Source: Streptomyces mobaraensis NBRC 13819 = DSM 40847
GTDB taxonomy: Bacteria > Actinomycetota > Actinomycetes > Streptomycetales > Streptomycetaceae
DNA length: 64,000 bases
NCBI RefSeq assembly: GCF_017916255.1
Contig: NZ_CP072827.1
Coordinates: 4,489,501 to 4,553,500, forward strand
Direction of reading: 5' to 3'
The notes below the pieces were generated by a model. It made no database searches. It saw nothing but the letters and a program-made list of their open reading frames with translations, and was not told the DNA's origin. Shown piece after piece: positions 49,297 to 52,154 of the stretch (position 1 is the stretch's first letter; every line of letters starts with the position of its first letter). The translations under genes were made by a program, and so were the position numbers.

Positions 49297-49528
49297 GCGC
49301 GGGGCGTCCGCACGGGCGGCGTGCGCCGCGCGGCCGGTCGCGCACGGCGCACGGCAGGCGAAGGGCCCCGGACCGTCTACGCGGGGGCGTGCGGACGGCC
49401 ACGGGGCCCTTGAAGCCGGCACCGGTGGAACAGGGCGGCCCGGTGCCGCGGTACGGCGCCGGGGGGAGCGCCGTGGTCTTCGGGTGGTGCGGGGCGCGCT
49501 TCCGGTGGTCCGACCAATGGCGGTGCGC
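49297..49528. other. intergenic DNA after the GMC gene
   Basis: Part of a 638-base gap between convergent genes. Frames open here carry no domain, ribosome site or codon bias. Confidence 0.4.
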
Positions 49529-49734
49529 TCCAAGGGAATTCGCGCCCTCTTGGCATCGTGGGGTATGAACCGCGTCGAACGCAACCGTTCGGGGTGGATA
49601 CGGTCGGTTCCAGGCGTCCCCGGAACCGACCGTTCCTTGGTGGCGGCCGGGCTGCTGTCCCCTGCCGACCGGCCGCCGTACCACCGGAGTGAGGTCCCAC
49701 GACGCGCGTCGGCGCGCGTCTCACACTCCGGTGG
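49529..49734. ncRNA. cluster of hairpins between convergent genes
   Basis: Consecutive inverted repeats: CCAAGGG/CCCTCTTGG (about 49529-49552, bulged), CGAACG/CGTTCG (49576-49591), CGGTCGGTTCC with its exact complement (49601-49632), GGCGGCCGG/CCGGCCGCC (49642-49677), and CCACCGGAGTG/CACTCCGGTGG (49681-49734) whose loop carries another 8-bp hairpin. Such density suggests a structured RNA, a bidirectional terminator array or a small mobile element. Transcription is not known. Confidence 0.4.
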
Positions 49735-49934
49735 AATCCGCCCTGTCGTTGCCGGGCGCCCAGGTGAACAGGGGCGGAGACCACGCGTGGATTCAGGTGG
49801 GCCGCTCCTGGCTGGCGCGGACACCGACTCCAACGAAGGCGGCTCGCGCCCGGTCACGCGCCGTACGGGTGACGGGGCGGGCGGCGGGTTTCCGCCGCGC
49901 CGGCGGCGCCGTCCGGCCGCCGGCCCGAGGGGGT
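49735..49934. other. intergenic DNA before the chorismate mutase stop
   Basis: No gene or further clear hairpin seen. Confidence 0.35.
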
Positions 49935-50240
49935 TCAGACGCGGCCCCGGCAGAGGTCCAGCAGGGTCATCGCGAGGACGGTGCCGTTCTTCCCCAGCCG
50001 GTCGCTGTAGTGGGTGAGGATCTCCATCTCGCGGGAGAGGTTGACACGGCGCCCGCCGGAGGCGATGCGCTCGCGCTGGATCTCCTCCGAGACGGCCATC
50101 CGCTCCTGGACGAGGCCGATGATCCTGCCGTCGAGTTCGTCGATGCGCTCCCGGGCGCCGGTGATCAGGCGGGCGGCCTCGTCGGTGCGGGCGCCGGTGT
50201 CGGTGGTGGCGGGGGTGACGGGTGCGGTGGTCGTGGTCAT
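49935..50240 (-). CDS. chorismate mutase (AroQ type)
   Basis: 101 residues; ATG 50240 follows GAGGAG. The all-helical AroQ fold is evident: ARERIDELDGRIIGLVQERM (about 29-48), AVSEEIQRERIASGG and REMEILTHYSDRLGKNG (about 70-86). It converts chorismate to prephenate, the first step toward Phe and Tyr. Neither prephenate dehydratase nor dehydrogenase is fused. The N-terminal 20 residues are Thr-rich and disordered. About 60-185 bases upstream lie a strong terminator hairpin and a leader ORF with Phe and Tyr codons, so expression is likely controlled by attenuation. Confidence 0.92.
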   Translation of the reverse strand: MTTTTAPVTPATTDTGARTDEAARLITGARERIDELDGRIIGLVQERMAVSEEIQRERIASGGRRVNLSREMEILTHYSDRLGKNGTVLAMTLLDLCRGRV

Positions 50241-50298
50241 GTCCGGTGTTCTCCTCGGGTGGGGGCCCGGCGCCGGCGCGGCCCTGAGGGGAAACGCG

Positions 50299-50334
50299 CG
50301 AGCGCCCCGGGCCTTGGCCGGCCCGGGGCGCTCG
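50299..50334 (-). terminator. attenuator terminator of the chorismate mutase gene
   Basis: A perfect 15-bp GC stem (50299-50313 with 50320-50334, six-base loop) lies between the leader ORF and the chorismate mutase start, followed on the minus strand by GCGCGTTTCCCC. Position and strength fit a premature terminator. Confidence 0.7.
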
Positions 50335-50348
50335 TGGAAGTCGCTGTT

Positions 50349-50426
50349 CTATCGCTGAGCAGCACGACCATGGCAGCCGGACGGGCCGGTGCCATAGGTA
50401 AAGACGAAGGTCGAGTGCTCGCGCAT
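50349..50426 (-). CDS. leader peptide with Phe/Tyr codons
   Basis: 25 codons plus TAG. Residues 5-11 read STFVFTY, i.e. two Phe and one Tyr codon within five positions, the end products of the chorismate mutase branch. The ORF ends 15 bases before the terminator hairpin. A sigma-70-like promoter ends seven bases before its ATG, so the transcript would start at or next to the A of ATG (leaderless), which is common for actinobacterial leader peptides. In the usual attenuation scheme ribosomes stalled at Phe/Tyr codons would favour read-through into chorismate mutase. I did not find a fully convincing antiterminator; GGCCCG within the leader can pair with the left arm of the terminator. Confidence 0.65.
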   Translation of the reverse strand: MREHSTFVFTYGTGPSGCHGRAAQR

Positions 50427-50433
50427 GGCGGAC

Positions 50434-50463
50434 AGTATGGCCCTCGGGGGGCCCCGGAGCCAA
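50434..50463 (-). promoter_or_regulatory. promoter of the chorismate mutase leader
   Basis: On the minus strand TTGGCT (50458-50463), an 18-base spacer and CATACT (50434-50439). Start of transcription is predicted at 50426-50427, the first base of the leader ORF. Confidence 0.6.
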
Positions 50464-50506
50464 CCGCATTCGGATGGTGAGACAAAAGCGGCCACCCCCG
50501 TCCCGG

Positions 50507-50512
50507 TAGAAT
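50507..50512 (+). promoter_or_regulatory. -10 box upstream of guaA
   Basis: TAGAAT lies 46 bases before the GTG of guaA in a stretch of lower GC content. A matching -35 box is not clear. It is divergent from the chorismate mutase leader promoter. Confidence 0.4.
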
Positions 50513-50558
50513 CGACAAATAGAGACCCCCACCCTCGACCGCCGGAAGGGCCGCTCCC

Positions 50559-52154
50559 GTGTCAGCAGCACCACCCCCCGCCGCCCACGACAACACCGCG
50601 GAGCCGGTCCTCGTCGTCGACTTCGGCGCGCAGTACGCCCAGCTCATCGCCCGCCGCGTCCGTGAGGCGCGGGTCTACAGCGAGGTCGTCCCGTCCACCA
50701 CTCCGGTGTCCGAGATCCTGGCCCGCAAGCCGAAGGCGATCATCCTCTCCGGCGGCCCCTCGTCCGTCTACGAAGAGGGCGCCCCGACGCTCGACCGCGA
50801 GATCTTCGAGGCCGGCGTCCCCGTCTTCGGCATGTGCTACGGCTTCCAGCTGATGGCCACGACCCTCGGCGGCACGGTCGACAACACCGGCGCCCGCGAG
50901 TACGGCCGCACCCCGCTGACCGTCTCCCGGCCGTCCTCCACCCTCTTCGAGGGCACCCCGGCCGAGCAGCCGGTGTGGATGTCGCACGGCGACGCCTGCT
51001 CCGCCGCGCCCGAGGGCTTCACCGTCACCGCGTCCACGGACCTGGTGCCGGTCGCCGCCTTCGAGAACGACGAGAAGAAGCTGTACGGCGTGCAGTACCA
51101 CCCCGAGGTGATGCACTCCACGCACGGCCAGCAGGTCCTGGAGCACTTCCTCTACCGGGGCGCGGGCATCGAGCCCACCTGGACCACGGGCAATGTGATC
51201 GAGGAGCAGGTCGCGGCCATCCGCGAGCAGGTCGGCACCAAGCGCGCCATCTGCGGCCTGTCCGGCGGTGTGGACTCCGCGGTCGCCGCGGCCCTCGTCC
51301 AGAAGGCCATCGGCTCCCAGCTGACCTGCGTCTACGTCGACCACGGGCTGATGCGCAAGGGCGAGACCGAGCAGGTCGAGAAGGACTTCGTCGCCGCGAC
51401 CGGCGTCAAGCTGAAGGTCGTGGACGCGCAGGAGCGCTTCCTGGCCGCCCTCGCCGGCGTCTCCGACCCGGAGGAGAAGCGGAAGATCATCGGCCGGGAG
51501 TTCATCCGGGTCTTCGAGCAGGCCCAGGCCGAGATCGTCGCCGAGGCCCCGGACGACCAGCCCGTCGAGTTCCTGGTCCAGGGCACGCTCTACCCCGACG
51601 TCGTCGAGTCCGGCGGCGGCACGGGCACCGCGAACATCAAGTCCCACCACAACGTGGGCGGCCTCCCCGAGGACCTGGAGTTCAAGCTCGTCGAGCCGCT
51701 GCGCCAGCTGTTCAAGGACGAGGTCCGCATGGTCGGCAAGGAGCTCGGCCTCCCGGACGAGATCGTCCAGCGCCAGCCGTTCCCGGGCCCCGGCCTCGGC
51801 ATCCGCATCGTCGGCGAGGTCACCAAGGAGCGCCTCGACCTGCTGCGCGAGGCCGACGCCATCGCCCGCGAGGAGCTGACGGCCGCCGGTCTCGACCGTG
51901 AGATCTGGCAGTGCCCCGTGGTCCTGCTGGCCGACGTCCGCTCGGTGGGCGTCCAGGGCGACGGCCGCACCTACGGCCACCCGATCGTGCTCCGCCCGGT
52001 CTCCTCCGAGGACGCGATGACCGCCGACTGGTCGCGCCTGCCCTACGAGACCCTGGCGAAGATCTCCACCCGCATCACCAACGAGGTGCGCGACGTCAAC
52101 CGCGTCGTCCTCGACGTGACCAGCAAGCCGCCGGGGACGATCGAGTGGGAGTGA
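50559..52154 (+). CDS. guaA: GMP synthase (glutamine-hydrolysing)
   Basis: 531 residues; GTG 50559 behind GGAAGGG. GuaA aminates XMP to GMP using glutamine and ATP. Glutaminase domain (about 17-205) with the catalytic Cys in GMCYGFQLM (about 91-99) and the His-Glu pair in [13 protein letters not shown]-pyrophosphatase domain with the P-loop [16 protein letters not shown] (about 230-245). The C-terminal dimerisation domain has [16 protein letters not shown] (about 406-421) and ends in KPPGTIEWE, the conserved terminus. Full length. A perfect 24-bp terminator hairpin with TTTT follows. Confidence 0.97.

What the first reader, a model, noticed from the sequence alone, without database searches (positions are those of the whole stretch)
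50299..50463. Leaderless Phe/Tyr leader peptide and attenuator upstream of chorismate mutase
Seen: on the minus strand a promoter (TTGGCT, 18 bases, CATACT) ends seven bases before the ATG of a 25-codon ORF with STFVFTY, followed 15 bases later by a perfect 15-bp terminator stem and then the chorismate mutase gene. Known: ribosome-mediated attenuation uses leader peptides rich in the codons of the end product; Phe and Tyr are the products of this branch. Inferred: chorismate mutase is controlled by Phe/Tyr-tRNA charging. I did not find a complete antiterminator.
Basis: partly seen in the sequence, partly recalled or inferred. Interest (0 to 1): 0.78.

Follow-up and report, generated by a model that had tools for sequence, protein, structure and literature searches.

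The report
Phe/Tyr leader attenuator of chorismate mutase
A tiny gene rich in phenylalanine and tyrosine codons sits in front of the chorismate mutase gene in nearly every Streptomyces examined and probably acts as a switch that opens this step of amino acid synthesis only when the cell runs short; similar switches, some also carrying tryptophan codons, guard the same pathway in other actinobacteria.

Summary
On the minus strand CATACT ends 7 nt before the ATG of a 25-codon ORF (MREHSTFVFTYGTGPSGCHGRAAQR); a perfect 15-bp hairpin follows its stop by 14 nt, then a Rv0948c-like chorismate mutase (CM). All three features together: 0 of 20,000 shuffles.

The reading is largely supported. The leader precedes CM in 108 of 108 loci with enough upstream DNA. 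Adding nine divergent Streptomyces loci, the rare codons TTT and TAT are invariant in 117 of 117.

Similar leaders precede CM in a Mycobacterium-like genus and other families; leaders with Trp, Phe and Tyr codons precede DAHP synthase elsewhere. Trp lies in the cluster of 43 of 46 DAHPS but 8 of 163 CM leaders.

Against: weak U-tract; equilibrium folding of the window's own sequence hardly separates a stalled from a finished ribosome; antiterminator no better than shuffles in several families. Geometry favours Phe, not Tyr, as signal. No expression data. New member of a known kind.

The parts
50458..50463 (-). -35-like hexamer TTGGCT
   Evidence: Read; TTG[AGC][CA] at 15-20 nt spacing in 82 of 117 Streptomyces leaders. 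The consensus promoter scan did not flag it.
50434..50439 (-). -10 hexamer CATACT, 7 nt before the leader ATG, so the transcript probably starts at or next to the A of ATG (leaderless)
   Evidence: CATACT in 106 of 117 Streptomyces leaders; a -10-like hexamer 6 or 7 nt before the start codon in 116 of 117. Start site not mapped.
50349..50426 (-). Leader ORF, 25 codons, MREHSTFVFTYGTGPSGCHGRAAQR*
   Evidence: leader conserved in 108 of 108 loci with upstream DNA. In-frame stop before the terminator stem in 117 of 117; in the other two frames 20 and 88 of 117.
50394..50408 (-). Regulatory codons TTC GTC TTT ACC TAT (F7 V F9 T Y11)
   Evidence: Last Phe codon TTT and Tyr codon TAT in 117 of 117, although TTT is 2.9% of Phe and TAT 6.3% of Tyr codons in 30 window ORFs.
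50372..50389 (-). Antiterminator strand (segment 2), CCGGCCCG..GGCUGCC, inside the leader ORF just 3' of the Tyr codon
   Evidence: Pairs with the terminator 5' arm; duplex median -26.8 vs -20.9 kcal/mol in shuffles over 96 unique Streptomyces sequences, 65 of 96 at p<=0.05.
50299..50334 (-). Terminator hairpin, 15 bp, loop GGCCAA (segments 3 and 4), tail CGCGTTTC
   Evidence: fold of the whole leader z = -3.17. The U-tract is short and the U-rich terminator scan does not flag it.
49935..50240 (-). Chorismate mutase, 101 aa, like M. tuberculosis Rv0948c
   Evidence: NF005894 115.5 bits; PDB 2qbv (Rv0948c) E 2.5e-13.
50559..52154 (+). guaA (GMP synthase), divergent neighbour, not part of the element
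   Evidence: NF000848 782.5 bits.

Best explanation
A ribosome-mediated transcription attenuator. Transcription starts at the leader AUG (inferred). A leaderless ribosome translates MREHSTFVFTYG... behind RNA polymerase. When Phe-tRNA (and perhaps Tyr-tRNA) is charged, it runs to the stop codon just before the hairpin; segment 2 refolds locally, the 15-bp terminator forms and transcription ends before chorismate mutase. When Phe-tRNA is scarce, the ribosome stalls at the Phe codons, its leading edge ending about where segment 2 begins; segment 2 (CCGGCCCG..GGCUGCC) pairs with the terminator's 5' arm as an antiterminator and the CM gene is read. Shown here: the ORF, codons, hairpin, competing pairing and their conservation. 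Inferred: start site, stalling, termination and physiological response.
For: Leader in 108 of 108 loci, and leader and CM ortholog present or absent together in 40 of 40 same-genus genomes of the class sample. TTT/TAT invariant in 117 of 117; the translated frame always stops before the hairpin, even in the 12 sequences whose frame is shifted by one base after TYG, so start-to-stop translation matters while the C-terminal peptide does not. In Streptomyces the antiterminator is better than shuffles in 65 of 96, with three-way co-variation of segment 2 and both terminator arms in L071 (CGGUCCG/CGGACCG) and in L070 and L094 (GGGUGUC/GACGCCC). Stall at the last Phe raises median antiterminator pairing to 0.89, against 0.66 with the ribosome at the stop, over 96 sequences (78 of 96 differ by more than 0.1). 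Codon choice tracks the product across families: Trp in the cluster of 43 of 46 DAHP synthase leaders and 8 of 163 CM leaders. Short aromatic ORFs with a leaderless -10 are far above shuffles upstream of non-Streptomyces CM (31 of 67 vs 0.75%) and DAHPS (46 of 68 vs 0.42%).
Against: For the window's own sequence the equilibrium model hardly discriminates (0.79 Phe9 stall, 0.63 Tyr11 stall, 0.75 ribosome at stop, 0.79 no ribosome); 18 of 96 Streptomyces sequences, the window's among them, show no clear stall effect, and the 28 f17 DAHPS leaders show none (median 0.65 vs 0.67). Once the 3' arm is made the terminator is the minimum-energy fold of the window sequence even with the ribosome stalled, so the switch would have to be kinetic. 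U-tract weak. Outside Streptomyces the antiterminator rarely beats shuffles: f4 1 of 22, f18 0 of 11, f17 6 of 28. L086 and L105 break or weaken a pair of the consensus antiterminator. Four Streptomyces CM leaders carry Trp (L097, L147, L148, L154), not expected for the Phe/Tyr branch. The S. lividans RNA-seq reannotation lists eight leader peptides, none for Phe/Tyr or CM (PMC8079986 passages).
Confidence: 0.8

Rival explanations
1. Translational rather than transcriptional control: stalling in the leader changes accessibility of the CM ribosome-binding site or allows re-initiation, and the hairpin is not an efficient terminator.
For: Weak U-tract. Cysteine genes of mycobacteria are said to be under translation attenuation (PMC13236596 passages). 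In f4 the leaders are conserved while the perfect-stem finder scored a median of only 6 bp, though by eye a longer, interrupted hairpin is there.
Against: The hairpin ends 58 nt before the CM start codon, and in the folds shown the competing pairing is segment 2 against the hairpin 5' arm, as in transcription attenuators.
Confidence: 0.11
2. The conserved element is a constitutive leader: the prematurely terminated RNA acts as a trans-acting small RNA, or the strong nucleotide conservation serves binding of an unknown factor, and the aromatic codons are incidental.
For: Conservation extends to stretches outside the named pairings, such as GACAAGCGACUUCC.
Against: Aromatic codons recur upstream of CM and DAHPS in many families whose other sequence differs, with codon content matching the product. 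The ORF stays open and ends in the same spot despite a frame shift.
Confidence: 0.05
3. The leader encodes a regulatory arrest peptide or a functional small protein, the amino acid sequence FVFTYG acting inside the ribosome tunnel rather than as codons for scarce tRNAs.
For: The core TFVFTYG is very similar throughout Streptomyces.
Against: After TYG the peptide changes frame in 12 of 117 while the DNA is kept. Other families use different aromatic orders (FFYG, FFYALTG, WFFY, FWRFYGY) with little other shared sequence. The rare codons TTT and TAT are fixed.
Confidence: 0.04

Closest known systems
C. glutamicum AroR leader upstream of the aroF (DAHP synthase) operon (Neshat et al. 2014, not held; known here through PMC11802643 section 7 and PMC4046766 passages)
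   Same: Actinobacterial leader peptide with Phe-Tyr-Phe; transcription attenuation in an aromatic pathway; reported to respond to Phe, not Tyr.
   Different: Controls DAHP synthase, not chorismate mutase. Sequence relation to the Streptomyces element not tested.
E. coli pheL-pheA attenuator
   Same: Leader peptide upstream of a chorismate mutase gene (CM-prephenate dehydratase), controlled by Phe-tRNA charging (PMC11802643 section 7).
   Different: Different enzyme and leader; Phe-only leader with a Shine-Dalgarno start (recalled). Here leaderless with three spaced aromatic codons.
Streptomyces trpE, trpS, leuS and ilvB leaders (PMC1262725 and PMC8079986, passages)
   Same: Short leader ORF with codons of the end product followed by a hairpin, in the same genus, several of them leaderless.
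   Different: Other amino acids. PMC1262725 states that no conserved RNA structures were seen upstream of Phe and Tyr operons; PMC8079986 lists no Phe/Tyr leader.
Mycobacterial polycysteine leaderless attenuators (Canestrari et al. 2020, paper not held; title seen in the reference list of PMC13236596)
   Same: Leaderless short ORFs acting as amino acid sensors in Actinobacteria.
   Different: Cysteine; said to be translation attenuation (PMC13236596 passage).

Membership tests
Ribosome-mediated transcription attenuator (trp/phe type) | Short leader ORF with clustered codons for the pathway end product | tested here: met
   F.F.Y-type core in 108 of 108 loci; 0 of 20,000 shuffles with all three features.
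Ribosome-mediated transcription attenuator (trp/phe type) | Intrinsic terminator between leader ORF and structural gene | tested here: inconclusive
   Perfect 15-bp GC hairpin, but a short U-tract not flagged by the terminator scan.
Ribosome-mediated transcription attenuator (trp/phe type) | Mutually exclusive antiterminator using the terminator 5' arm | tested here: met
   65 of 96 unique Streptomyces sequences beat 95% of shuffles; three-way co-variation in L071 and in L070/L094. In silico only, and rarely better than shuffles in f4, f18 and f17.
Ribosome-mediated transcription attenuator (trp/phe type) | Stalled ribosome favours the antiterminator, finished ribosome the terminator | tested here: inconclusive
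   Median 0.89 vs 0.66 over 96 sequences, but 0.79 vs 0.75 for the window and no difference for 28 f17 DAHPS leaders.
Ribosome-mediated transcription attenuator (trp/phe type) | Structural gene belongs to the pathway of the sensed amino acid | tested here: met
   CM, NF005894 over cut-off; in the relatives DAHPS, NF006421 447.9 bits, cut-off 335.
Ribosome-mediated transcription attenuator (trp/phe type) | Expression responds to amino acid limitation | not testable with these tools
   No expression data.
Leaderless leader peptides of Actinobacteria | Start codon at the transcription start site | tested here: inconclusive
   -10-like hexamer 6 or 7 nt before the start codon in 116 of 117; start site not mapped.
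AroR-aroF attenuator of Corynebacterium | Phe/Tyr leader located upstream of DAHP synthase | tested here: not met
   The downstream gene is chorismate mutase; no qualifying ORF in 500 nt before the host's class II DAHP synthase match.
Any Rfam family (T-box, riboswitch, known leaders) | Match to a curated covariance model | tested here: not met
   In 49500-51500 only a sub-threshold mir-1913 match, on the other strand and outside the leader.

The most novel reading that the evidence does not exclude
Actinomycetes use a clade-wide, two-tier family of leaderless aromatic attenuators whose codon mix encodes the branch point: Phe/Tyr codons in front of chorismate mutase (Streptomyces, a Mycobacterium-like genus and other families) and Trp+Phe+Tyr codons in front of DAHP synthase (family f17 and others), so that the first common step senses all three aromatic amino acids and the branch step senses two; by geometry Phe is the main signal and the last Tyr codon mainly sets the edge of the switch.
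Probability: 0.55. Interest if true: 0.75.

Novelty: new member of a known kind. Interest (0 to 1): 0.6.

Why it matters
It supplies a candidate for transcriptional control of chorismate mutase in Streptomyces, where a 2005 survey reported no conserved RNA structures for Phe and Tyr operons (PMC1262725), and in relatives of Mycobacterium, whose Rv0948c-type enzyme needs complex formation with DAHP synthase for high activity (PMC7762937, start of abstract in a search listing). The CM/DAHPS comparison gives a natural experiment on how leader codon composition evolves with the position of an enzyme in a branched pathway, and a concrete question: why is a Tyr codon kept if Tyr is not sensed?

Tried and rejected
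Rfam: no family. The alignment-based consensus found the terminator but not the antiterminator, since the two exclude each other and the alignment staggers the CGGCCCG segment; I used per-sequence duplex prediction instead. In one search the unusual pairs of L086, L148, L149, L150, L151 and L152 look like shifts of register or anchor, and I do not count them as co-variation. The same leader elsewhere in the host genome: only the known copy is strong (E 3e-30); the next, E 0.024 and above, are not credible. No qualifying aromatic ORF in 500 nt before the host's class II DAHP synthase or prephenate dehydratase matches. Many weak model hits outside Streptomyces cover only the hairpin; of the 40 regions I fetched I kept those with a leader and a pathway gene. 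CM leaders of f18, f12 and f21 were found with an F-Y-specific pattern, so those 13 are biased in the Trp comparison; without them CM is 8 of 150. The f17 DAHPS leader L163 (MRNLVYFFRY..., no Trp) was not in the count and makes it 43 of 47. Sequences are not independent: by family, Trp occurs in at least one leader of 10 of 11 DAHPS families and 2 of 11 CM families. In one search regions under 200 nt or with N runs, and L253, were dropped before counting. Leaders for one search were listed by hand. A relaxed scan of 22 non-f17 DAHPS regions without a leader found two plausible Phe/Tyr leaders (L297, L308), one doubtful ORF (L319) and 19 with nothing. Literature: searches (the label SCO4784 is recalled) showed me no Phe/Tyr attenuator of chorismate mutase in Streptomyces or Mycobacterium, going by listings and the passages read; Neshat 2014, Lopatovskaya 2010, D'Halluin 2023 and Canestrari 2020 were not read and could hold such a prediction.

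Full report
What is there. The minus strand between guaA (divergent, 50559-52154) and chorismate mutase (50240-49935) holds, in order, TTGGCT, 18 bases, CATACT, 7 bases, a 25-codon ORF (50426-50349), 14 bases, a perfect 15-bp hairpin (50334-50299) and the CM gene with GAGGAG before its ATG. CM is NF005894 and resembles M. tuberculosis Rv0948c (2qbv, E 2.5e-13). Of 20,000 dinucleotide shuffles of the upstream 320 nt none gives aromatic cluster, leaderless -10 and hairpin together, and among 270 regions upstream of long open frames in the window only this one does.

Conservation in Streptomyces. I fetched 80 named loci (one is named [Kitasatospora] papulosa and one Actinobacteria bacterium) and 30 from the own and unnamed same-genus genomes; some genomes occur in both. 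Two loci end too close upstream; all other 108 carry the leader, whose usual form is M..[H/Q].TF.FTYG; 93 of the 108 leader-to-terminator stretches are distinct. In one search, 289 of 295 same-genus genomes match the CM at E <= 0.001. A covariance model (R1) searched in 394 class genomes hits 39 of 40 same-genus genomes at E <= 1.4e-15, and all 39 have a CM over the family cut-off; the 40th, G563, has neither. Of the 6 same-genus genomes without a CM match, two (G113, G138) do have the leader, on contigs that end 51 and 204 nt beyond it, so that CM is missing or cut short; the other four, like G563, give only weak model matches (E >= 3e-5).

Evidence that translation matters. With nine divergent Streptomyces leaders there are 117. 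The last Phe codon is TTT and the Tyr codon TAT in 117 of 117, though these are 9 of 313 Phe and 15 of 237 Tyr codons in 30 long window ORFs. The frame in use stops before the hairpin in 117 of 117, against 20 and 88 of 117 for the other two frames; in the 12 leaders with one extra base after TYG the frame in use also stops there. In the window's lineage the usual TGA is lost and a TAG two codons on replaces it. So the reading frame from start to stop is kept, while the residues after TYG are free to change.

The antiterminator. Segment 2, right after the Tyr codon, reads CCGGCCCG(U)CCGGCUGCC; the terminator 5' arm and loop read GGCGCCCCGGGCCG (GAGCGCCCCGGGCCGG in the window). They pair over CGGCCCG/CGGGCCG and GGC-U-GCC/GGCGCC. 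Duplex energies: median -26.8 against -20.9 kcal/mol for shuffles; 65 of 96 unique sequences beat 95% of shuffles. Changes that keep all three strands paired: L071 (leader U, 5' arm A, 3' arm U) and L070 with L094 (the same change at another place). L086 and L105 instead break or weaken a consensus pair. In some other families segment 2 is a near copy of the terminator 3' arm with a different sequence: L320 GCCCGGGGCTC (p 0.005), L303 GGGGCCTC (p 0.12), L321 CCGGGGCTC (p 0.155). But against shuffles of such GC-rich sequence few reach p <= 0.05: f4 1 of 22, f18 0 of 11, f17 6 of 28.

Switching. I masked an assumed ribosome footprint and asked how often the 5' arm pairs with segment 2 before the 3' arm is made. 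Over 96 Streptomyces sequences the medians are 0.89 (stall at last Phe), 0.68 (Tyr), 0.66 (ribosome at stop) and 0.68 (no ribosome); 78 of 96 exceed the stop state by more than 0.1 with the Phe stall, 32 with the Tyr stall. The window's own sequence gives 0.79, 0.63, 0.75 and 0.79, a weak difference, and the 28 f17 DAHPS leaders give none. The assumed 3' edge lies 12 nt after the first base of the A-site codon: at Phe9 it falls at leader nt 37, one base before segment 2 begins at nt 38; at Tyr11 it covers most of its first half. Hence my expectation that Phe is the main signal, which agrees with the report that AroR-aroF of C. glutamicum responds to Phe but not Tyr (PMC11802643, section 7).

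Beyond Streptomyces. I searched CM orthologs in the class and read the upstream DNA of 70 loci (30 returned, 40 fetched; in L252 I found no CM, and L253 is a second Streptomyces CM). In f4, 22 of 23 loci of genus g4 have leaders such as VLSKQRFFYGYRSAVPVV; g4's CM matches Rv0948c at 149.8 bits (L186), so I take g4 for Mycobacterium or a close relative. The 10 loci of other f4 genera (L187, L200-L202, L209, L210, L212, L249-L251) show none that I accept. In f18, 11 of 22 loci have FYG[GD]R[AV]RSPL leaders with a plausible start, and 5 more show FYG without a clear one. There are leaders in f12, f14, f21, f31, f35, f37, f46 and f48.

DAHP synthase (NF006421) was the gene behind the model's weak hits in f17. 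A DAHPS search returned 30 loci, all f17 and the best matches to the query; 30 of 30 have a leader such as MQRNFWRFYGYRP... or MRTA[WF][SW]FWYGDGP.... A further f17 leader, L163, has Phe and Tyr but no Trp. Of 40 further DAHPS loci 38 have enough upstream DNA and 17 a qualifying ORF; the 16 leaders I list lie in f2, f8, f14, f20, f24, f26, f27, f28, f31 and f38. So the DAHPS leader is common but far from universal.

Controls. ORFs with an aromatic cluster and a -10 box occur in 31 of 67 non-Streptomyces CM and 46 of 68 DAHPS upstream regions, against 0.75% and 0.42% of shuffles. Trp lies in the cluster of 43 of 46 DAHPS leaders (43 of 47 with L163) and 8 of 163 CM leaders (4 Streptomyces, 4 f4); 13 of the 163 were found with an F-Y pattern, so 8 of 150 is the fairer figure. 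By family that is 10 of 11 for DAHPS and 2 of 11 for CM, which matters more because the sequences within a family are related.

What is known, as far as I could see. PMC1262725 (passages) found no conserved RNA structures for Phe and Tyr operons in Actinobacteria. PMC8079986 (passages) lists eight leaders in S. lividans without Phe/Tyr. PMC13236596 (passages) deals with ilvB1 in M. tuberculosis; its main text does not contain the word chorismate. PMC5784534 (passages) names trp, ilvB and leu leaders, and PMC3890552 (passages) those of trpE, leuA, ilvB and aroF. PMC8269248 (passages) reports 96 novel premature transcripts in S. clavuligerus; its main text does not contain the word chorismate, and its data sets were not seen. 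Several relevant papers were not held.

Verdict. A real and very well conserved element that most probably attenuates chorismate mutase: of a known kind but, in the papers I could search, undescribed for this gene. The sister leaders on DAHP synthase with all three aromatic codons raise its interest. The regulation itself is inferred.

Noticed in passing
L256-L285 (family f17), about 150-230 nt upstream of DAHP synthase: Leaderless leaders with Trp, Phe and Tyr codons (e.g. MQRNFWRFYGYRPVPRTVACKALR) before DAHP synthase, many with a GAGCCCCGGGC-type hairpin, in 30 of 30 returned loci: a possible three-amino-acid attenuator of the first shikimate step.
   Followed up: partly
L097, L147, L148, L154: Four Streptomyces CM leaders carry a Trp codon inside the aromatic cluster (FWFSYG, FWFTYG, VWFSYG, QWFSYG), unexpected for the Phe/Tyr branch.
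   Followed up: no
L008 and L015: Segment 2 is rearranged by an insertion; in L008 the new GGGGUGUC pairs along its length with GGCGCCCC of the terminator.
   Followed up: partly
L200, L202, L209, L210, L212 (f4 genera other than g4): CM orthologs without an aromatic leader; L200 and L212 seem to keep a leaderless-looking short ORF with few aromatic codons, so the control may have been lost or replaced.
   Followed up: no
Window 50348-50335 and A1 columns 101-122: The stretch between stop and terminator (GACAAGCGACUUCC in most Streptomyces) is strongly conserved though not part of the named pairings; it may form a small GCUUG/CAAGC hairpin or a polymerase pause site.
   Followed up: no
L001 (G000:C1:1919105-1919341): A second, stronger CM_2 match (77.5 bits, open frame 145 aa) elsewhere in the host genome.
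   Followed up: no
G087:C1:6142449-6142739: The CM match downstream of the divergent leader of L154 contains one in-frame TGA in the tool's count.
   Followed up: no
L329, last bases: The contig of G113 ends 51 nt after the leader in CTGTCTCTTATACACCTCT, which looks like a sequencing-adapter remnant (recalled), so the missing CM there is probably an assembly artefact.
   Followed up: no
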